Shown here in pieces: positions 236 through 10,999 of a DNA stretch of 44,456 nucleotides. The DNA is taken from assembly GCF_900113935.1 (NCBI RefSeq), contig NZ_FORF01000020.1, positions 1 to 44,456 of the forward strand, read 5' to 3'. The position numbers and the translations under genes were made by a program. Position 1 is the first letter of the stretch. Each line of letters starts with the position of its first letter. The notes under the pieces were generated by a model. It worked only from the letters and a program-made list of their open reading frames with translations, was not told where the DNA came from and made no database searches. Origin of the DNA: Aquamicrobium aerolatum DSM 21857. Its GTDB lineage: Bacteria; Pseudomonadota; Alphaproteobacteria; Rhizobiales; Rhizobiaceae.

Positions 236-300
236 CTTGGTTCCTTCGTCAGACGACGAGACCAAAACACTCCTTAAAGCTCAACCCTGAATCTGTGCCA
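1..300 (-). mobile_element. IS3-family insertion sequence, left-end portion only
   Basis: This is the upstream end of an insertion sequence that runs off the left edge of the window. It contains the start of an OrfA-type transposase read on the minus strand. Read on that strand, the element appears to start with TGGCACAGATTCAGGGTTG, a TG terminus as expected for IS3-family ends. Immediately to the right (from about 301) the sequence becomes the ATPase domain of an ABC transporter already in mid-domain, so the boundary at about 300 is inferred from where transporter homology resumes. The other terminus and any target-site duplication lie outside the window. Confidence 0.75.
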
Positions 301-969
301 TGGGCGCTGACGGGGAACACGCTGGCAATCATCGGAAATTCGGGTGCCGGCAAGACGACGCTCGGCAAGATGCTCGTCGGCTCAATTCTGCCGACTTCCG
401 GCAGCGTACGTCTCGACCTGATGGACCTTCGCAACTGGGACCAGCGGCAGTTCGGCGAAAATATCGGCTATCTTCCGCAGGACGTGCAGCTCTTTCCGGG
501 CACGATCAAGGCAAACATCGCACGCATGCGAGACGACGCCACGGACGAGCAGATCTTCGAAGCGGCAATGCTGGCTGATGTGCATGAGATGATCGCAAAC
601 CTTCCTCATGGCTACGAGACGATGGTGGCAGCGGACGGATCGCCGTTGTCGGGTGGCCAGAAACAGCGGATCGCGCTTGCACGGGCCTTTTTCGGCAGCC
701 CACGCATGGTCATCCTTGATGAGCCGAACTCCAATCTCGACAGCGCCGGTGACGCTGCGCTCATGCGCGCTCTGGAACATGCAAAGCAGCACAAGATCAC
801 TGTCGCCACGATCACACAGCGCCCATCTCTGCTCGCAAGCGTCGACAAGGTGTTGCTGCTGGTCAATGGCACGGTGGCTCTCTTCGGGCGACGGCAGGAA
901 GTGCTGAACGCGCTGGCCTCGCGCGGCATCAGCATCGAAACCGGCTCGTTCGGCCATCAGCTTCAATAG
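295..969 (+). pseudogene. Type I secretion ABC transporter, ATPase domain only (5' truncated by IS)
   Basis: About 224 codons encode a complete ABC nucleotide-binding domain of the PrtD/HlyB export type: Walker A GNSGAGKTT, Q-loop YLPQDVQLF, signature LSGGQKQR, Walker B MVILDEP and an H-loop region in which the usual His is Gln (TITQRP). The whole N-terminal membrane domain, normally about 300 residues, is missing because the IS element joins roughly ten codons upstream of Walker A. The only in-frame start, GTG at 295, lies in the IS terminus. A free ATPase domain could be made but could not form the export channel. The downstream hlyD-type gene shows that this was an ABC-adaptor operon. The transporter is therefore probably inactive unless a second copy exists. 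Confidence 0.8.
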
Positions 970-982
970 GAGCGGAAATCCG

Positions 983-2323
983 ATGACAACAGACTTGGCA
1001 AAGATCCAGGATCTGGAATGGTACAGCGAGGTTCCGCGATCAATCCGCAAGCAAACGATCATCGGCCTGGCCATTCTCGCAGTTTCGTTCGGTGGTTTCG
1101 GAATATGGGCGACGACCGCGCCACTGGCGGCGGCGGTGATCTCTCAAGGCAGCTTCGTCGCCACCGGCCAGAACAAGGTGGTGCAGCACTTCGAGGGCGG
1201 CATCATCAAGGAGATGCTCGTAAGCGAGGGCGACGAGGTGAAGGAGGGGCAGCCGCTTGTGCGCCTGGACGAGACGGCGGCGCTTGCCAAGGAGCGCGAG
1301 CTTTTCCTGCGCCGCTCACGGCTCGAAATTATCGTCGCCCGGCTCAGCTCGCAATTCCGCGGTGACGAGACAATGGCTATTCCCGTTCCGGTGGAGCCAC
1401 ATATTGGCGACCCTGACGTGGCGGCGATCCTCGCAAGCCAGAAGCTGCATTTCGATACCGCACGAGTGAAGCGTTCAAGCGAACTCAAGTTGCTGGAGCA
1501 GAACGTCAAGTCTCTCGACTTCCGCATGCAGGGCTATCTGCATTTGCGTGACTCGATGATCGAACAGCTGGGGCTGTTGCGCGAAGAGCATGAGGGCAAG
1601 AAGATACTGCTCAACAAGGGGCTTTTGCGCGCGACGGAAGTCAGTGCGATCCTTCGTGCAATTTCAGAGGCTCAAGGCGAGATCGGCCGGCTTGAGGCCG
1701 AAATTTCCGAGACTGGTGCGCAGATGATCAAGGCCGAGCAGGAAATTGTCGGGACCACCGACAAATTCAGGGAAGACGCGCTCGATCAGCTCCAGAACAT
1801 CCAGGGCGAACTCGAAGTGGTCCGCGAACAGTCGCGTGAGGCAGAGAGCGTTCTGCGACGCGCGACGATAAACGCGCCGGTTTCTGGCACGGTGATCCGC
1901 CTGCACTACCATACCCCGGGTGGGGTCATTGAAAGCGGAAAGGGCATCATGGAGATTCTGCCAGCCAATGTTCCGCTGATCATCGAAGCTCAGGTGCCAC
2001 GCAACGATATCGACAGTGTCACCACCGGGCAGAAGGCAACTGTTCGCCTGACTGCGCTCAACCAGCGCACCACGCCCGTTCTTGAAGGCAAGGTCTTCTA
2101 CGTTTCCGCGGACGCATTGCAGGATCAAAATACAAATTCACCCGCCGAGGTCTACGTTGCCCGCATCAGCCTGCCGGCAAGTGAACTTGGACGGGTTGCC
2201 GGCTTTTCACCCACGCCGGGCATGCCAGCGGAAGTCATGATCCAGACCGGCGAACGCACATTTTTCAGCTATCTTGCCAAGCCGATCACCGACAGCATGT
2301 CACGCGCATTCTCCGAGCGGTGA
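983..2323 (+). CDS. HlyD/PrtE-family type I secretion periplasmic adaptor
   Basis: This 446-residue protein is the membrane fusion protein of a type I secretion system, linking the inner-membrane ABC exporter to a TolC-type outer-membrane channel. It has a short cytoplasmic N-terminus, one membrane helix at about residues 26-45, a lipoyl/barrel-sandwich half (VVQHFEGGIIKEMLVSEGD), a long coiled-coil hairpin at about 110-300, the second lipoyl half (RATINAPVSGTVIRL) and a C-terminal beta-barrel. The length is normal for the PrtE/HlyD family. An AGGAG site lies just upstream, 13 bases after the truncated ABC gene, so the two were one operon. Its partner is damaged by the IS element, and no TolC gene or RTX substrate is present in the window. 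Confidence 0.93.
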   Translation: MTTDLAKIQDLEWYSEVPRSIRKQTIIGLAILAVSFGGFGIWATTAPLAAAVISQGSFVATGQNKVVQHFEGGIIKEMLVSEGDEVKEGQPLVRLDETAALAKERELFLRRSRLEIIVARLSSQFRGDETMAIPVPVEPHIGDPDVAAILASQKLHFDTARVKRSSELKLLEQNVKSLDFRMQGYLHLRDSMIEQLGLLREEHEGKKILLNKGLLRATEVSAILRAISEAQGEIGRLEAEISETGAQMIKAEQEIVGTTDKFREDALDQLQNIQGELEVVREQSREAESVLRRATINAPVSGTVIRLHYHTPGGVIESGKGIMEILPANVPLIIEAQVPRNDIDSVTTGQKATVRLTALNQRTTPVLEGKVFYVSADALQDQNTNSPAEVYVARISLPASELGRVAGFSPTPGMPAEVMIQTGERTFFSYLAKPITDSMSRAFSER

Positions 2324-3319: not shown

Positions 3320-5374
3320 TCAAAAACTGATCCGCATGCCCACACTCAGGGCGTGCGAGTTGGCGTTCCTTTGAAAGTTACCTTGATAGTGGGCGAACCA
3401 ATCGCGGTTCTCGCTGGTGGCCAGGTTCAGTTCGGCTCCCAGCCGCAGGATGTCGCGCCCGAGGGCCGCGCTTTGTCCTTCAATCGAGCCGCCAAGCAGC
3501 GTAACCGATGTTGCGTTGCTGAGGTCGCCGCTCAAACGTGCATAGGAAATGTCACCTGCCAGACGCAGCGAGCCGTATTCCACCTGAAGAGCCGACGATT
3601 CGATGCGAAGCCCGGCTCCGGCCTCAACCTGGCCATAGCTTGCTGCCGGCAGGGATAGATCGAAAATTCCAGCCCCGGTTTCGTAGCCGGCGCCCGTGTT
3701 TTGCCAACGCGTTGCGACTGAGAGATAGGGGGCGATCGTGAAGTCATGGGAGAGGTCGAGGCGACGGCCGGCCTGAGCGGACAGCTCGAACCCTGTCCCC
3801 GATAAATTTGAGCGCCCGACCGGGGCAAAGCTCACGCCGACAGCACCGCCAATCGCACGTCGCTCGATCGACTGGTTGAAGATGGCTGCCTGTCCCGTGC
3901 CTTCCAGGAACCAGCCTCTATCGGTCCATCCGGCATATGCGCCAAGATGGAAGGCGTCGGAACTTCCGCTGTCGTCGGCGTGGCGCGTTTCCAGCCGGGT
4001 ATTGGTGTAGCCGAGGGCAAGACCGAATCTGGCCTGATGGTTGCGAACGAAGTCTGCGCCGATGACGAGGCCACCCAGATGGCTTGTTGCACCGAAGGAC
4101 GAGGACGATTCGTTGATTGAAGCGGTACCGAATAAAGGTGCGATCCAGATGTCTGGCGTTGCAGTGTTGGGGACCGTGATGACACTGCCTGCCTGGTCAC
4201 GAAGCGTGCTGGCATAGCTGAGCAATGCGAAATCGGTGTCGAGAGACGGTTTTGGCAAATGCGGTGCCGTGAGGCGCTGTCGCAACAGTGTGCTGACATG
4301 CCCGAGCGTGGCGAAGCGCGACCACGCAGCGTTAGCAAACGTGCCCGCTGTGGCAGGCGCGGCCGTATCGACAATGTTGCCGATGTTGAGCAGGCCCCAG
4401 CCGTAGACCGGATCGATGCCGGGATCGCCGACGTCGGTTGCCGTCTGCAGGACAAGCTGCGTCAGCTCTGAACCTGTGGCTTGCGGGAACAGTTGCGCGG
4501 CAATCGCGACAGCGCCGGTGACGTGCGGCGTGGCCATCGATGTGCCGTTGATGCTGTAATATCCGCTGCCCGGCCATGAAGACCAGATGGCGTCGTTCGA
4601 TCCGTCGTCGCCATCTCCGCCTGGCCCGGCCAGACACCATGCTGCCGCGACGCCGCAGCGTTCGGCGTAGCTTGCGATGTTGCCTGTCGGCCCCACGGAG
4701 GTCACTGCAATCCAATTGGACTGGAGTTCCGGATGAAAGTAGGGCAGCGCTGAAAATACATCTGGTTGAGGTTGTTTCGAGTTGCCGGTCGCGAAGACCT
4801 GAATGATGTCGGCGCGCGTCGATTCACGAAGGGCAGTCAGCGTGTCCTGAAAGTTCTGTTCAAAGAAATCGGGGGCGACGTCTGCAACCGTCAGGGTGCG
4901 TTTCTCGCCTGTTACGGGGTCGGTGAACTTCATTCCCCAGGAATTGTTGACGACCCGGACATTTTGCGCCGTCGCCCATCTGAAACCCGCTGCGTAGCTG
5001 GAATCAGTGCGGACCGGTACGGCCCAGTTGATGCCCGAGATCATGCTTTCCGACGCAACGCCCACCTTGTGCCCTGCAATCGTTCCAGTCACATGGGTGC
5101 CGTGAAAATCGTTCCCATAGGGACCGTAGGGAGTTCCATCAACGTTGAAGCCGCCAACCCAGCGGTCGCCAAATTCCGGATGGTCCGGTTGCGCCCACTC
5201 ATCCATCACACCGATATGAACGCCGCGGCCACGCAACCCGTTTTCCCACGCCTTGCCGACGCCGATCATCGACATGCCCCACAGCCGCTCGTCGATTTGA
5301 GCGTGCGCATGGTCTATCGACGCCGCCATTGTTGCCAAAGTCAGCGCGCCAGCTGTCGCGAGAATATTCTTCAT
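3320..5374 (-). CDS. S8 subtilisin-type serine protease autotransporter
   Basis: This is a 684-residue self-secreting protease (type Va). A signal peptide (MKNILATAGALTLATMAAS, probable cleavage after AHA near residue 25) is followed by a subtilase domain to about residue 340. Its catalytic set is D58 (GVMDEWAQPD), H91 (NDFHGTHVTG), N198 (FATGNSK) and S279 (INGTSMATPH). The C-terminal 270 or so residues form an autotransporter beta-barrel ending in the expected aromatic residue (GMRISF). The Asp motif is unusual: D58 is followed by Glu-Trp instead of the common Ser/Thr-Gly. The other motifs are textbook. The gene is divergent from the Slam/cargo unit across a 425-base gap. Substrate unknown. 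Confidence 0.93.
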   Translation of the reverse strand: MKNILATAGALTLATMAASIDHAHAQIDERLWGMSMIGVGKAWENGLRGRGVHIGVMDEWAQPDHPEFGDRWVGGFNVDGTPYGPYGNDFHGTHVTGTIAGHKVGVASESMISGINWAVPVRTDSSYAAGFRWATAQNVRVVNNSWGMKFTDPVTGEKRTLTVADVAPDFFEQNFQDTLTALRESTRADIIQVFATGNSKQPQPDVFSALPYFHPELQSNWIAVTSVGPTGNIASYAERCGVAAAWCLAGPGGDGDDGSNDAIWSSWPGSGYYSINGTSMATPHVTGAVAIAAQLFPQATGSELTQLVLQTATDVGDPGIDPVYGWGLLNIGNIVDTAAPATAGTFANAAWSRFATLGHVSTLLRQRLTAPHLPKPSLDTDFALLSYASTLRDQAGSVITVPNTATPDIWIAPLFGTASINESSSSFGATSHLGGLVIGADFVRNHQARFGLALGYTNTRLETRHADDSGSSDAFHLGAYAGWTDRGWFLEGTGQAAIFNQSIERRAIGGAVGVSFAPVGRSNLSGTGFELSAQAGRRLDLSHDFTIAPYLSVATRWQNTGAGYETGAGIFDLSLPAASYGQVEAGAGLRIESSALQVEYGSLRLAGDISYARLSGDLSNATSVTLLGGSIEGQSAALGRDILRLGAELNLATSENRDWFAHYQGNFQRNANSHALSVGMRISF

Positions 5375-5799: not shown

Positions 5800-6906
5800 T
5801 TGGAGGGGCTGGGTATTTCTATTCGTTCTTATGCGGCCGGTATGGCTATCGCCCTGCTGACTGGTTCTGTGGCACAGGCAACACAATTTTTCGTCGGCGT
5901 TGATCCCAGCAACCCTGGGCGGCTAGGGTTTTCGCCATCTGCGTCTCCGGACCGGCCTGCAGACGGCAGCGCTATTCCGGCAAATACGCCGTCGCTGGAA
6001 ATCCTCAGGTCAAGGATTGATCAGCTTTCCTCAAGCGGTCACTTCCCCTCCGCAGGCCAGCAGCCGAGTCTGACGCCTGAACAGATTGCGGATGTTGTGG
6101 CCGCGATCTTGAACCCCACTCAACCGGACGGATCAGTCACCAGCGACGTTCCCGCGTGGGTAGCGGATGCTCTTGCCCGAGTTCCTGATCGCAGCTCTTC
6201 CGATGAAGCCCAGGCGGCACTTCGGGACATGCTTGGGCTTGATGGCGCGACGGGTGCAGGATCGGAAGGTGATCGGCGCACTGATGCCGAAAGGGCTGCG
6301 CATGAGCGTCTCCTCAGGGCTCGCCAACAAGCTCTACAGGCTGAACGGATAGCCGCCCTCGAACAGCAGCGACTGGATAGGTCTCGCCAGGAGGAGGAGA
6401 AGGAACGTCGCCTGGCTGAATTGATCCGCAAGCACACGGAAGCACGGGCGCCAGATCCAGAGCCAGACCCGCTGCCGCAGCCTGATCGCTTTGAGAACTA
6501 CCCGTTTTCGTTTGCGCAAGACTATACGCTGGACCTTGACACGGACATCACGCGCAGCGGCGAATATCACGGATTTGCCAGAGGCATGGACTTTGCCGAC
6601 AATGAGATTGACGGTGCGGTGTCACTGACGTTCGATCTGGCCACAGCAGCCCTTTCCGGCAGGTTCGATTTTGGTTCCACGGGATTGCTGCATGTCAGCG
6701 GCAACGTTGATGCCGGTGCCCTCAATATGGAGCTGGACCGTTCCCAAACGTCGTCCTTTGGCGGATTTGAGCTTGATCCCGCATCTGCAGCATTTGATGG
6801 CGTCAGTTTCTTCGGCCCTACAGGCGAAGAGATCGGCGGCTACTGGGGTATTGACATTGAGCAGGGCACTGCCTGGGGCCAGTTTGTCACGGCGAGGCAG
6901 CCGTGA
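5800..6906 (+). CDS. Secreted TbpB-like barrel protein, probable type XI secretion cargo
   Basis: The protein has about 363-368 residues. An N-terminal signal peptide (SYAAGMAIALLTGSVAQA) has no cysteine at its end, so this is not a lipoprotein, and I see no cysteine in the protein at all. A Pro/Ser-rich segment follows, then an Arg/Glu-rich predicted coiled coil at about 155-220. A C-terminal domain of about 130 residues matches the TbpB-type small beta-barrel pattern: YHGFARGMDF, GAVSLTFDL, LSGRFDFG and finally FFGPTGEEIGGYWG. Such barrels are the standard cargo of Slam translocators, and the next gene encodes one with a GTGA overlap. The ligand is unknown; haem or metal binding is only a possibility. 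The start is uncertain: TTG at 5800 has no ribosome site, GGAGGGG at 5802-5808 points to ATT at 5815, and an ATG lies at 5842. Confidence 0.8.
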   Translation: MEGLGISIRSYAAGMAIALLTGSVAQATQFFVGVDPSNPGRLGFSPSASPDRPADGSAIPANTPSLEILRSRIDQLSSSGHFPSAGQQPSLTPEQIADVVAAILNPTQPDGSVTSDVPAWVADALARVPDRSSSDEAQAALRDMLGLDGATGAGSEGDRRTDAERAAHERLLRARQQALQAERIAALEQQRLDRSRQEEEKERRLAELIRKHTEARAPDPEPDPLPQPDRFENYPFSFAQDYTLDLDTDITRSGEYHGFARGMDFADNEIDGAVSLTFDLATAALSGRFDFGSTGLLHVSGNVDAGALNMELDRSQTSSFGGFELDPASAAFDGVSFFGPTGEEIGGYWGIDIEQGTAWGQFVTARQP

Positions 6907-8249
6907 AGGGGCGTCTTCTTGCCAGCTTGACGGCTGTGGCTCTGCTGGGTGCGGCCACAAGCGCATATGCCCGCATCAATGATGGTGCCGCGTCGACGCC
7001 GGACCCCCGCGCCGTGCTTGCTGCGGCTGAATTTCTTCGGGCGGGTCGTGCGGTGGAAACCTGCATGTTGCTCGACGTCGCCGCAGGACCACAGACATCC
7101 TATGTTCCCGCGCTGGTGCTTTACGGCCAGTGCCATCTGGATCAGGGACATATCTCGGATGCCGAGGTGTATTTTACGCGGGCACTGAAAATTGAGCCGC
7201 AAAATGGGATGCTTCGCAAGCGCGTCGAGCTTGTACGCGCAATACGCGAGTTTGTTCTGGCACCGGAGCCGGCCATCCGCCCGTCGGCGCGCCGGGTTGC
7301 CGAAAAGCTGCCAGCGCTGGTGGCAGAGCCACGCCCTGTGGCAATGCAGCCAGCGCCAAAGCGTGCGCCGCGTCTGAGTCAGTCGGTCACAGTCGCGCGC
7401 GGCTACGACAGCAACGTCAATAGCGGCACTTTTCAGACTTCTGTCGACGCTCTGATCGGGGGCGTAACCGTTCCCCTGACATTGACACCTGGCTCCAGGG
7501 CGCAGGGCGATGCGTTCACCCGACTGCGCAGTGATTTCGCGTTGATGCAACCGTTCTCCAGCAATAGTGCCGGGCAGCTGGTGGCATCTGTCGACGCTGT
7601 CGTGCACGACCGGTTGTCTGAATATGACAAGCTCGGCTTTGCTCTTTCTGCAAGATATTTGCGGTTGGGGCGTGAGTGGAGCGTCAGCTTCGGTCCGAAT
7701 TTGTCCTATGAGCTTTCAGGCAGCAATCTGAACAAGGGAACGGTGGGCGGCACAGTCTTTGCCCGTCATGCGCTCAGCCGGCAGTTCGAGCTTCAGGGCC
7801 AGCTGGATTTGCGGCACGAATTCTATCCAGGCAGCGCCAGTGGCAACTCAAACGCTGCGACGACCCGCCTGGGCTTTTCCTATGAGCTTGGGAATGACTG
7901 GAAGCTCGGAGCATGGCTTGAAAATCGCCTGATGGACCGGTCGACGCCGTCGCGCAGTTTTGCGGGTGCCGGCGGCCGCCTTTTCCTGCGCGGGCAATTG
8001 AGCGAAGATCTCGCGCTTCAGGCCAGCTATTCCGTAATGCGAGATGCCTATAAGGCGGGGCTTGCCGCGTTCCCGCAGGATCGCATCGACATCGAGCAGG
8101 CAGCAAGCATCGGGCTTGACTGGAGGCTTCCTACGACCGAGGGGCTGAGTCTTCTGACCAGCTACAGCTTCCAGTCGATCGATTCGACGATTGATGCCTA
8201 TGACGCGAAGCGACACGTCATCTCGACGGGGCTGCGTCTCGCCTTTTGA
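6903..8249 (+). CDS. Slam-family outer-membrane translocator (type XI secretion)
   Basis: This 448-residue protein has a signal peptide (MKGRLLASLTAVALLGAATS, cleavage near AYA). A periplasmic TPR-like region covers about residues 35-110 (YVPALVLYGQCHLDQGHISD, EVYFTRALKIEPQNG). From about residue 155 to the C-terminal Phe (GLRLAF) it is a transmembrane beta-barrel, opening with the characteristic VARGYDSNVNSG. TPR plus a barrel of about 290 residues is the architecture of Slam (DUF560/SlipAM), which moves TbpB-like proteins across the outer membrane. The GTG start overlaps the cargo stop codon (GTGA) and has GCGAGG five bases upstream, so the two genes are translationally coupled. Family assignment is by architecture and motif, not by a search. 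Confidence 0.82.
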   Translation: MKGRLLASLTAVALLGAATSAYARINDGAASTPDPRAVLAAAEFLRAGRAVETCMLLDVAAGPQTSYVPALVLYGQCHLDQGHISDAEVYFTRALKIEPQNGMLRKRVELVRAIREFVLAPEPAIRPSARRVAEKLPALVAEPRPVAMQPAPKRAPRLSQSVTVARGYDSNVNSGTFQTSVDALIGGVTVPLTLTPGSRAQGDAFTRLRSDFALMQPFSSNSAGQLVASVDAVVHDRLSEYDKLGFALSARYLRLGREWSVSFGPNLSYELSGSNLNKGTVGGTVFARHALSRQFELQGQLDLRHEFYPGSASGNSNAATTRLGFSYELGNDWKLGAWLENRLMDRSTPSRSFAGAGGRLFLRGQLSEDLALQASYSVMRDAYKAGLAAFPQDRIDIEQAASIGLDWRLPTTEGLSLLTSYSFQSIDSTIDAYDAKRHVISTGLRLAF

Positions 8250-8540: not shown

Positions 8541-9275
8541 ATGAACATCCAGATTTACGCAATCAACCTCGATCGTTCTGTCGACCGATGGAATGCGTTG
8601 TCGCGGCGCGCCGAAGAGTTTCAACTTCCGATCGTTCGTGTGTCCGGCGTTGATGGCACCCAGACGCCACCGGAGCAGCGCGTTGACTGCGACATTGCCG
8701 CGTTCGAATTCAAGAACGGGCGGACCATGTTGCCGGGCGAGTACGGGTGCTACCGCAGTCACCTGAAAGCGCTGACGCAATTTCTTGCAAGCGGCGACGG
8801 CCTTGCGGTCATCGTTGAAGACGACATTGTCTTGCCTGCCGATCTTCTCGATCGCGTGCGCGCGGCCGTGGCAGCTGTTCCGGATGCAGATGTCATCAAG
8901 TTCTTCAATCACCGGGTGGTTGCGTTCCGAAAGATTGCGACGTCCAGTCTGGGCGATGAAATCGGACGCGCTGCGCATGGTCCGCTGGGCTCATCGGCCT
9001 GCTATGTAGTCTCGCGCAGCGGTGCACAGCGCTTGCTGGAGGGGATGCAGGTAATGGAATTTCCGCTCGACATGGCGCTGGAGCGGGGGTGGGCGTCGGG
9101 CGCCAGCATCTATATCACGCGCTTGAATGTTGCCGAGCCGACACGCGAGCCGTCGACGATCGCCTCGCGAACAATCTATAAGACCAACAAGTTCCCGTGG
9201 TGGAAGCGCCTTGGAACTCTGGCCACGCGAACCGCAGAAGCGGTCAGGCGGACGGCCTATGCGTTGAAGGGCTGA
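8541..9275 (+). CDS. Glycosyltransferase family 25 (LPS/polysaccharide biosynthesis)
   Basis: This 244-residue protein has the GT25 layout: an N-terminal nucleotide-sugar region starting IYAINLDRSVDRW (the typical INLDR.. motif), GEYGCYRSHLKAL at about 66-78, the metal-binding acid cluster VIVEDDIVLP with E93-D94-D95, and a later SSACYVVSRSGAQRLL segment. GT25 enzymes, such as LgtB/LpsA-type galactosyltransferases, add a sugar to lipooligosaccharide cores or to other glycans in the cytoplasm. The acceptor cannot be told from sequence. The ATG lies just after repeat copy A. The gene converges on the O-antigen ligase-like gene with a 6-base gap, and both probably act on the same surface glycan. 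Confidence 0.88.
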   Translation: MNIQIYAINLDRSVDRWNALSRRAEEFQLPIVRVSGVDGTQTPPEQRVDCDIAAFEFKNGRTMLPGEYGCYRSHLKALTQFLASGDGLAVIVEDDIVLPADLLDRVRAAVAAVPDADVIKFFNHRVVAFRKIATSSLGDEIGRAAHGPLGSSACYVVSRSGAQRLLEGMQVMEFPLDMALERGWASGASIYITRLNVAEPTREPSTIASRTIYKTNKFPWWKRLGTLATRTAEAVRRTAYALKG

Positions 9276-9281
9276 GACGCG

Positions 9282-10556
9282 TCAGGCAGCGATTGCCTGA
9301 TGGTCGTTGCTGCTGTCGAGGCGTCGGATTCTCTTGCGTTCAGTTGCCAGCACGCCGACGAAAACGAGCACGATTGCGGCCACGTTGCGGTCACCAAGCA
9401 GCAACCCGTGCAGCGAGCCGTAAAGCAGGAGCAGTGCAAGAAATATCGCCATGTTCACCCGCATCGGGTGGTCGGTGGTTCTGAAAATACGGGTGAAAAC
9501 GACCGCAAACAGCCCGATGAGAAACACCAGTCCCACGATCCCCCGGTCACGCATCTCGTCCAGTGCGAAGAAGTGGACATGCACGAAATCGGCATAGAGG
9601 CTAGCGTTCGGATCGGGGATATTCTGCTTGATCCGCTCCATGCTTTCCTTGCCGCCGACACCCAGAAGTGGGTATTCGCGCACGACGTCGATCGTACCCT
9701 TCCAAAGATTGATCCGGATATCGAGGCCCGTGGTTTCCTTGTCCGACGGTCCTGTCAGATTGCCCATTTCAAGCATCGTATAGGCGATGCGACTGGAGAC
9801 GATGTCGCGTGTTTCATAGGCACCGGCCGCGATGACGACCAGACCGGCAGCGCCTGCAACTGCCAGCCGCCGCGCGCCCAGTTTTCTTGCGGCGGTGAAA
9901 AGTTCAGTCCGCAGTTCGATGATGTCGATGATTGCCGCGATGACAAAGATCGGCAGCACGCTTCGTGTTCCTGTCATCAGGACGGGAATGATCGCGAAAT
10001 AGAACCACGCACGGCTGTTCGGCAGGTATTTCGGCGCATTGCTGGCATGGAAGCGAGCCATGACCGCCAGAACGCAGATGACGAAGGCGGCATTTGCAGC
10101 GTTGCCGCCGAGGCCTATGCGCGTTTCGCCCATGAAGCTCTCGAAAAGCGCCATCCCGACCGTCAGGATGAGCCCGACGCGTGCACCGAGTGCCATCTGC
10201 CGTACCGGGTTCCTGATCAGGACGAAGCCAACGAAGAGCGCGATGCCGAGCGAAAAATAAAGCGGCAATCCGATCCATCGGAGATTTTCGATGACGTTGC
10301 CATGATAAAGGCCGATCGCAACAGCGACCCCGCCATAGGCGAGACTGGCAGCCGCATAGTGTGGATCGATCAGCTGGCGCGAACGATGCCATCCGCAGAT
10401 GAGATAAATTCCGACGCCGCCGAAAAACGCCAGGAGGACTGTGTCGAGGCCCAGCTTGATCGGAAAGCAGGCGACGGCAATCGACAGAAGGATCGGGTCG
10501 ACAGAACGCCGCCACAGCAACAGCCGATGCATCAAGCCTGGCTTTGGCGACTGCAC
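9282..10556 (-). CDS. O-antigen ligase/polymerase-like membrane protein
   Basis: This is a multispanning inner-membrane protein of about 424 residues with roughly ten to twelve hydrophobic segments. One long periplasmic loop near residues 245-320 contains the R/H-rich Wzy_C-type region, including RINLWKGTIDVVREYPLLGVGG and then FVHVHFFALDEMRDRGIVG. That loop pattern is characteristic of WaaL ligases and Wzy polymerases, which handle undecaprenol-linked glycans on the periplasmic face. Ligase and polymerase cannot be separated without structure or genetics. The start was chosen at the GTG at 10556 because AAGAGGGG lies seven bases before it; an in-frame GTG at 10598 would add 14 residues. The next genes (GT25, flippase) are of the same pathway type. 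Confidence 0.85.
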   Translation of the reverse strand: MQSPKPGLMHRLLLWRRSVDPILLSIAVACFPIKLGLDTVLLAFFGGVGIYLICGWHRSRQLIDPHYAAASLAYGGVAVAIGLYHGNVIENLRWIGLPLYFSLGIALFVGFVLIRNPVRQMALGARVGLILTVGMALFESFMGETRIGLGGNAANAAFVICVLAVMARFHASNAPKYLPNSRAWFYFAIIPVLMTGTRSVLPIFVIAAIIDIIELRTELFTAARKLGARRLAVAGAAGLVVIAAGAYETRDIVSSRIAYTMLEMGNLTGPSDKETTGLDIRINLWKGTIDVVREYPLLGVGGKESMERIKQNIPDPNASLYADFVHVHFFALDEMRDRGIVGLVFLIGLFAVVFTRIFRTTDHPMRVNMAIFLALLLLYGSLHGLLLGDRNVAAIVLVFVGVLATERKRIRRLDSSNDHQAIAA

Positions 10557-10999
10557 GGAGTGCCCCTCTTTTTTTCGCGGCAACAGGTTGTTTGTCACGT
10601 CTGCCTACTGGGAAAGAGTAGATTGGTGTCGGGAAATAAGAACGAGAGGCACGAGGGCTTCGCTCTGATCTGGGCACAGTCGTGAAAGATGTCGCTGCTT
10701 CCTGTGGTTGTGGCGATAAACATTCATCACTGTTGCGTCAAGTATACCGATGGGTTCATGCTACGTACTTTGGTGATGGTGCATTCGGTTCAGCCTGGCG
10801 CGGCGGTTCCGTCATTTGCTCGATTCGAACAAATGACGGGTGGCCACGTAGTCTCGTGTCAGCAAGAGAGACGTCAATCAACTTGCCCGAACCCATCCTT
10901 GATTGATGGCGGTCGCACCCGTGCCGTTTCCGGCAGGCTGTGCTTACCCCACCTTCAATCCGATTGACATCCATATTGCGCAGCTCTCGCTGGCGATAT
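10557..10999. other. Gene-free stretch with a perfect 10-bp inverted repeat
   Basis: No convincing gene was found between the two minus-strand genes. The main structure is CCGTCATTTG (10809-10818) and CAAATGACGG (10830-10839), separated by 11 bases that themselves contain CGATTCG. It has no T-run on either side, which suggests an operator or a remnant of a mobile element more than a terminator. Short ORFs on both strands lack ribosome-binding sites and recognisable protein features. Confidence 0.4.

What the first reader, a model, noticed from the sequence alone, without database searches (positions are those of the whole stretch)
5800..8249. Probable type XI secretion pair: a non-lipidated TbpB-like cargo coupled to a Slam translocator
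The sequence shows a signal peptide without a lipobox, a coiled coil, a small barrel ending in FFGPTGEEIGG, and a GTGA-coupled TPR plus beta-barrel outer-membrane protein. Slam proteins are known mainly for surface lipoproteins of Neisseria and relatives and for a few soluble haemophores. A free secreted cargo with a long Arg/Glu coiled coil in a rhizobial-type genome is unusual, and its ligand is unknown. It may be a new cargo class.
Basis: partly seen in the sequence, partly recalled or inferred. Interest (0 to 1): 0.78.

Follow-up and report, generated by a model that had tools for sequence, protein, structure and literature searches.

The report
Divergent type 11 secretion gene pair
Two overlapping genes in a rhizobium-like bacterium very probably encode a free, unanchored protein and the outer-membrane channel that releases it, a distant member of a known secretion system that standard family models miss; what the released protein does is unknown.

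Summary
The OMP (6903-8249) scores under Pfam's SlipAM cut-off, but its barrel alone scores 59.4 bits against 15 SlipAM OMPs of the same family that have a cargo gene nearby (best of 500 shuffles 4.8) and 2.0 against BBP2 porins. A modest AlphaFold2 model shows TPR-like helices and 14 strands. The cargo (5800-6906) has no cysteine, so it cannot be a lipoprotein; its last 142 residues score 32.2 bits against 14 cargo barrels of relatives (best of 2000 shuffles 11.4). The nearest relative found, an alphaproteobacterial MAG, has the same gene order and 4-base overlap, and a TbpB_B_D cargo over cut-off. The "coiled coil" is a 60-residue charged helix candidate with a poor heptad pattern. Soluble cargo and charged-helix cargo are both in print, so this is a very divergent member of a known kind, seen only in its own genome among 8 of its genus. 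A bolder lead: the OMP falls in a branch whose recognisable cargos all lack a lipobox, FecR-domain proteins included. Ligand and secretion are untested; the cargo fold prediction failed.

The parts
5800..6906 (+). Cargo gene: N-terminal signal peptide without lipobox, Pro-containing N-terminal part, charged helix candidate, C-terminal TbpB_B_D-like barrel (start codon uncertain)
5802..5808 (+). GGAGGGG, a Shine-Dalgarno-like stretch 6 bases before ATT 5815
   Evidence: sequence; its role is inference
6271..6450 (+). 60-residue Pro/Gly-free, R/E-rich helix candidate (cargo residues 158-217)
6526..6903 (+). TbpB_B_D-like barrel of the cargo (about residues 243-368), with FFGPTGEEIGGYWGI
   Evidence: Pfam E 0.013, below cut-off; 32.2 bits against 14 related cargo barrels, 0 of 2000 shuffles
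6903..6906 (+). GTGA overlap of the cargo stop and the OMP start
6903..8249 (+). T11SS/Slam-type OMP: signal peptide, TPR domain, 14-strand barrel, terminal F
7062..7133 (+). C-x22-C in the TPR domain (OMP Cys54 and Cys77); in the aligned columns only L058 and L069 of 44 other OMPs share both

Best explanation
The two genes are a divergent type 11 secretion pair. The cargo is exported by Sec, processed by signal peptidase I, kept unfolded in the periplasm (probably by Skp), recognised through its C-terminal 8-strand barrel by the TPR plus 14-strand-barrel OMP, and passed through it. It folds outside and, having no lipid anchor, is released or stays loosely bound. The N-terminal part and charged helix are the effector or a rod-like spacer. 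Shown here by sequence: the family of both proteins, the gene coupling, the absence of a lipid-anchor cysteine. Inferred from the literature: route, chaperone, recognition, release. Unknown: the ligand.
For: OMP: 81.6 bits (E 3.1e-24 in a search of 1116 ORFs) with a profile of 25 PF04575 hits that leaves out the relatives found with the window; 200 shuffles and the reverse reach 2.3. Three of those 25 then proved to be BBP2 porins; a strict profile of 15 OMPs with a cargo gene nearby gives the barrel alone 59.4 bits (best of 500 shuffles 4.8) against 2.0 with a profile of 20 BBP2 porins (shuffles reach 6.3); hhalign 97.4% against 1.2%. Model: TPR-like helices plus 14 strands, 10 of them in the better part; the Foldseek list has CymA at rank 1 and OmpG at rank 10 (TM by target 0.71), which I know as 14-strand barrels. 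Cargo: 32.2 bits against 14 barrels and 22.9 against 34, 0 of 2000 shuffles each; hhalign 93%. Window plus L058 barrels against 16 same-family cargos: hhalign 97.5%. Pairwise panel of 17 cargos: summed Z 5.7, 0 of 500 shuffles. Context: of 30 OMP ORFs examined, 17 (window and L058 included) have a barrel cargo directly upstream on the same strand, gaps -4 to 156 bases, C-termini judged by eye. No cysteine in the cargo. Published: HrpB-dependent release of soluble HrpC; Skp-aided passage of unfolded TbpB through Slam1.
Against: Neither protein reaches a Pfam cut-off, and PF04575 finds nothing in the window's own genome. The narrower profile of 16 same-family cargos gives the window cargo only 3.5 to 4.6 bits, and some shuffles beat it; hhalign with the window alone against those 16 gives only 16.8%, although above all 200 shuffles. 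In the pairwise panel 10 of 17 single comparisons have Z under 2. The cargo fold prediction failed. The OMP model has pLDDT under 50 over residues 173-256, and BcsC and PelB, TPR-barrel glycan exporters, are in the Foldseek list. The pair was seen only in its own genome, so its conservation cannot be tested. No experiment.
Confidence: 0.87

Rival explanations
1. The OMP is a TPR plus barrel exporter of exopolysaccharide (BcsC, PelB or EpsL-like) or a BBP2 porin, and the upstream gene is an unrelated periplasmic protein. Polysaccharide genes (GT25, O-antigen ligase) lie just downstream.
For: Sub-threshold hits to BBP2_2 (E 0.077) and EpsL (0.087) equal that to SlipAM (0.092); BcsC and PelB in the Foldseek list; GT25 and Wzy_C genes at 8541-10598.
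Against: A BBP2 profile of 20 same-family proteins scores the barrel at 2.0 bits, within its own shuffles, while the SlipAM profile scores 59.4 (BcsC, PelB and EpsL profiles were not built). The neighbour carries the T11SS cargo barrel. L058 repeats the pair, and by eye no glycan gene stands beside it.
Confidence: 0.06
2. Within the T11SS reading: the cargo is a haemophore or metal-binding protein feeding a TonB receptor, like haemophilin.
For: Same soluble, single-barrel layout as haemophilin and HrpC.
Against: Pfam scans of 26 ORFs of the window (not every ORF) found no TonB-dependent receptor or haem gene; no beta handle was recognised before the barrel; binding residues could not be tested.
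Confidence: 0.12
3. Within the T11SS reading: the cargo is a surface or matrix adhesin or spacer. The charged helix acts as a rod like that of Pls, and the barrel is mainly the export signal.
For: A charged helix before the barrel recurs in 2 of 44 other barrel proteins scanned, L161 and L159, both with a lipobox-like cysteine, and in Pls-like cargo.
Against: No lipid anchor here, so retention at the surface is unexplained; the helix candidate is short (60 residues).
Confidence: 0.35

Closest known systems
TXISS-1B: HrpB with soluble cargo HrpC, and haemophilin (PMC8406197: abstract, section 4 part 1 of 2, and passages seen)
   Same: DUF560 OMP next to a soluble, single-TbpB_B_D cargo with a type I signal peptide
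   Different: No TonB or haem gene among 26 window ORFs scanned; cargo N-terminus has a charged helix candidate; both proteins fall below Pfam cut-offs
Pls-like T11SS cargo with TepS (PMC12282271: abstract, sections 15 and 16 seen)
   Same: Long charged alpha-helix before a C-terminal barrel; T11SS-dependent surface exposure shown there
   Different: The tested Pls is a 525-aa lipoprotein with helix repeats; the window cargo has no cysteine, no clear repeat, and little room for a pedestal
Cluster 3 T11SS of marine Rhodobacteraceae and Roseobacteriaceae (PMC12282271: sections 17 and 18 seen)
   Same: Alphaproteobacterial OMP with a barrel cargo beside it
   Different: The cargos described there are lipoproteins in a locus with thymidylate synthase, glyoxalase and DUF1194 genes, none of which was among the 26 window ORFs scanned
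L058/L075, MAG IP29b_bin.162 (contig JANQPL010000004.1)
   Same: Cargo-OMP order, 4-base overlap, C-x22-C in the TPR domain, no lipobox, OMP similar over nearly its full length (23%, E 2e-11)
   Different: Cargo ORF is 985 aa, with a large N-terminal part that looks helical and a beta-looking region before the barrel (by eye)

Membership tests
T11SS (SlipAM/DUF560) outer-membrane protein | SlipAM barrel by sequence profile | tested here: met
   Below the Pfam cut-off (12.7 of 22 bits), but 59.4 bits with a strict profile of relatives against 2.0 with BBP2
T11SS (SlipAM/DUF560) outer-membrane protein | N-terminal TPR domain plus 14-strand barrel | tested here: met
   TPR_2 E 2.2e-5; 14 strands in a model of mean pLDDT 58.7, four of them low. 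That Slam barrels have 14 strands is the finding's claim and my recall
T11SS (SlipAM/DUF560) outer-membrane protein | Gene next to a cargo gene | tested here: met
   GTGA overlap; cargo barrel
T11SS (SlipAM/DUF560) outer-membrane protein | Moves its cargo across the outer membrane | not testable with these tools
   needs a secretion assay
T11SS cargo (TbpB_B_D barrel) | C-terminal 8-strand barrel by sequence | tested here: met
   Pfam E 0.013, below cut-off; 32.2 bits, 0 of 2000 shuffles; but some shuffles beat it with the 16-cargo profile
T11SS cargo (TbpB_B_D barrel) | 8-strand barrel in a predicted structure | tested here: inconclusive
   pLDDT 38.3
T11SS cargo (TbpB_B_D barrel) | Sec signal peptide | tested here: inconclusive
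   Looks so by eye and hydropathy; no signal-peptide program on hand and the start codon is uncertain
Slam-dependent surface lipoprotein | Lipobox cysteine | tested here: not met
   No cysteine in the cargo
Haemophilin-like haemophore | TonB receptor or haem genes nearby | tested here: not met
   None among 26 window ORFs scanned
Haemophilin-like haemophore | Binds haem | not testable with these tools
   needs a binding assay
BBP2 porin | BBP2_2 profile | tested here: not met
   2.0 bits, within shuffles

The most novel reading that the evidence does not exclude
The window pair belongs to a separate alphaproteobacterial T11SS branch specialised for free, non-lipidated cargo of new classes: proteins with helical N-terminal parts (window, L058) and FecR-domain proteins carrying a C-terminal T11SS-like barrel (L062, L063, L168, L170). 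In a 45-OMP tree the window lies in a 9-row group (96/98). By one explicit lipobox rule 27 of 27 cargos labelled lipidated outside the group pass and 0 of 5 labelled soluble inside it do, and one change on the tree explains this. Long branches are present, 13 rows are unlabelled, and no signal-peptide program was run.
Probability: 0.35. Interest if true: 0.6.

Novelty: new member of a known kind. Interest (0 to 1): 0.4.

Why it matters
It shows a T11SS pair in which both proteins fall below the Pfam cut-offs and that is recognised only by joining two weak signals, so counts of cargo per OMP in Alphaproteobacteria may be too low. PMC12282271 left open whether marine cargos have below-threshold similarity, lie elsewhere or are gone. 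It also offers a small soluble cargo with an unstudied effector part for secretion assays, and points to a possible soluble-cargo branch.

Tried and rejected
Close relatives: the OMP alone in genome contigs gave 28 pattern matches, 0 confirmed; with L058 aligned, 92 matches and 1 confirmed, L058 itself again. The OMP in plasmids gave 4 weak hits (E 0.09-0.2), the one opened lying in a kinase gene; the cargo in plasmids gave none, and in 385 class genomes hit only itself. PDB sequence search: the OMP profile matched 182 sequences, and the 60 shown match its TPR part; the cargo profile matched none. A cargo profile from same-family lipoproteins alone was not enough. My first 25-row OMP profile proved impure: L061, L064 and L065 score 286-372 bits as BBP2 porins, so I rebuilt it with 15 rows. 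Coiled coil: not supported by heptad count. Synteny with congeners: the GT25-like genes of G172 and G587 are parts of larger ORFs; the surroundings in G172 look different by eye, and for G587 I saw ORF lengths only, so no empty site was identified. Promoter scan: 1 found, 1.1 expected; terminator scan: 6 found, 3.3 expected. NCBIfam gave nothing over a cut-off; PHROGs one weak hit to the cargo (E 0.013, phage scaffolding protein, residues 130-235) which I put down to helix composition. 16S of the genome was not found, so the genus is not named. PMC5192318 and PMC5498481 (passages only) did not bear on T11SS.

Full report
What is there. ORF 5800-6906 (+, 368 aa) and ORF 6903-8249 (+, 448 aa) overlap by GTGA. 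To the left lies a subtilase autotransporter on the other strand; to the right a GT25 glycosyltransferase and an O-antigen-ligase-like protein. SecA of the window is 75.9-77.7% identical to the Sinorhizobium, Shinella and Rhizobium records listed, which puts the genome in or near Rhizobiaceae. Its name is not given to me.

The OMP. Pfam gives TPR_2 at E 2.2e-5 and only sub-threshold SlipAM (E 0.092) and BBP2_2 (E 0.077), so the family had to be decided otherwise. A PF04575 search hit 25 of 199 genomes of the family, the window's own not among them. A profile of 25 such OMPs, without the window and without the two relatives found by the window, scores the window OMP at 81.6 bits; 200 shuffles and the reverse reach 2.3. 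Three of those 25 turned out to be BBP2 porins, so I repeated the test with 15 OMPs that have a cargo gene nearby (directly upstream in 14, about 1 kb downstream in L039). The window barrel alone then scores 59.4 bits (best of 500 shuffles 4.8) and 2.0 bits against a profile of 20 BBP2 porins (best shuffle 6.3); hhalign gives 97.4% against 1.2%, and 99.6% against 4.6% when L058 is added. A two-sequence AlphaFold2 model (mean pLDDT 58.7; 58-87 per ten residues from residue 261 on, under 50 at 173-256) shows TPR-like helices and 14 strands. The Foldseek list has CymA at rank 1 and OmpG at rank 10, but also BcsC and PelB.

The cargo. Pfam gives TbpB_B_D at E 0.013 over residues 266-361, below its cut-off, and 0.006 when the first 114 residues are left off. 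A profile of 16 same-family cargos does not separate it from shuffles by HMMER: 3.5 bits with 1 of 500 shuffles higher, 4.6 with several of 1000 higher. hhalign puts it above all 200 shuffles (25.3 against 16.6), though at a probability of only 16.8%. A pairwise panel of 17 cargos gives a summed Z of 5.7, 0 of 500 shuffles, with 10 of the 17 single comparisons under Z 2. An alignment-based OMP search over 385 class genomes (48 hit at E 1e-6, the window's own included, some in the TPR part only) led to further pairs; I fetched 35 of these places. Against a profile of 14 cargo barrels (13 from there plus L058) the window barrel scores 32.2 bits, best of 2000 shuffles 11.4, hhalign 93%; against all 34 cargos 22.9 bits, best shuffle 13.3. 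Of 1156 other ORF C-termini from the fetched loci and the window, six score higher with the first profile and nine with the second; by eye they look like further cargos. The profiles contain nothing of the window cargo, but their loci were sampled by OMP kinship. The cargo has no cysteine, so it cannot be lipidated. Residues 158-217 are rich in R and E but have a poor heptad pattern. Its fold prediction failed (pLDDT 38.3).

Gene order. Of 30 OMP ORFs examined, 17 (window and L058 included) have a barrel cargo directly upstream on the same strand, judged by eye from the C-terminus. L058, from MAG IP29b_bin.162, is the nearest relative found: OMP 23% over nearly the full length, SlipAM 43.1 bits and TbpB_B_D 26.9 bits, both over cut-off, a 4-base overlap, and a C-x22-C in the TPR domain which, in the aligned columns of 45 OMPs, only the window, L058 and L069 share.

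Distribution. With the window OMP as query 3 of 199 family genomes hit, the own one included; the other two match only part. Of 385 class genomes 8 hit, own included; L058 matched residues 13-444 and L069 12-355, the rest short parts. In the genus, 8 of 8 genomes have some match to the six-OMP profile, but only the window's own is near full length; the sister G172 has a different SlipAM. Third-position GC is 0.58 in the cargo and 0.66 in the OMP, against 0.68 in the autotransporter, 0.70 in the GT25 gene and 0.74-0.79 in secA, lysC, ptsP and clpB, which fits a late arrival or fast evolution.

Branch and cargo type. In a tree of 45 OMPs the window sits in a 9-row group (96/98) and, less surely, with L058 and L069 (93/93, long branches). 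I labelled 27 rows as having lipidated cargo and 5 (window, L058, L062, L063, L170) as not; one change on the tree explains this. A later check by one rule, a cysteine after G, A, S or C behind a hydrophobic stretch, agrees for 32 of 32. Thirteen rows were left out because no cargo was seen or the case was unclear; among them L168, in the same group, whose partner also lacks a lipobox by eye, and L157 and L158, in the group, whose downstream partners I could not show to be cargo. L147 and L148 were labelled lipidated although each locus also holds a further barrel protein whose signal type is unclear. The partners of L062, L063, L170 and L168, and of L174 outside the tree, carry FecR domains and barrel scores of 22.6-35.2 bits. 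The main text of PMC12282271 does not contain FecR, and a library search found no paper holding both 'FecR domain' and DUF560 or T11SS (6 papers listed); supplements were not read.

Mechanism. Sec export, a periplasmic holdase, recognition of the C-terminal barrel and passage through the OMP are inferred from published T11SS work: PMC9090332 (passages), PMC8406197 (abstract, section 4 part 1, passages), PMC12282271 (abstract, sections 15-18, passages). Nothing about transport was shown here. No TonB receptor or haem gene was found among 26 window ORFs scanned with Pfam, so a haemophore role has no support from context. I lean to a secreted rod or adhesin-like protein (0.35).

Novelty. Soluble cargo and charged-helix cargo are both in print. 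The main texts of the two T11SS papers hold no 'rhizob', but their supplementary tables were not seen, so rhizobial members may be listed there. The pair is an unusually divergent member of T11SS; the possible soluble-cargo branch with FecR proteins is the bolder lead.

Noticed in passing
L062:2216-4987, L063:5730-8390, L170:1178-2992, L168:6866-9988, L174:7384-9768: FecR-domain proteins (Pfam over cut-off) without a lipobox by eye and with a T11SS-like C-terminal barrel (22.6-35.2 bits) lie directly downstream of SlipAM-like OMPs; similar-looking partners by eye at L163, L169, L171, L177 and L179, three of them with what looks to me like a GAF-type gene upstream (not tested).
   Followed up: partly
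window 5800-5860: No good ribosome site serves TTG 5800 or ATG 5842, but GGAGGGG lies 6 bases before ATT 5815, which would give a neat signal peptide; a rare AUU start is possible.
   Followed up: no
window 3320-5374 (-): Subtilase with autotransporter barrel (Peptidase_S8 E 2.2e-44, Autotransporter E 1.3e-36), next to the T11SS pair on the other strand.
   Followed up: no
window 295-2323 (+): ABC ATPase followed by a HlyD-type protein.
   Followed up: no
L061, L064, L065: PF04575 hits at or near its cut-off in this family that are really BBP2 porins (286-372 bits with a BBP2 profile); the SlipAM model cross-reacts.
   Followed up: yes
L161:4151-5716 and L159:4538-6421: Putative T11SS lipoprotein cargos with long charged helices; L161 has ETRAEQA-type repeats and a weak Alanine_zipper hit.
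   Followed up: partly
L147, L148: One SlipAM OMP with cargo genes on both sides, two per locus with long Pro-Thr repeats, resembling the Sphingomonas surface proteins of PMC12282271.
   Followed up: no
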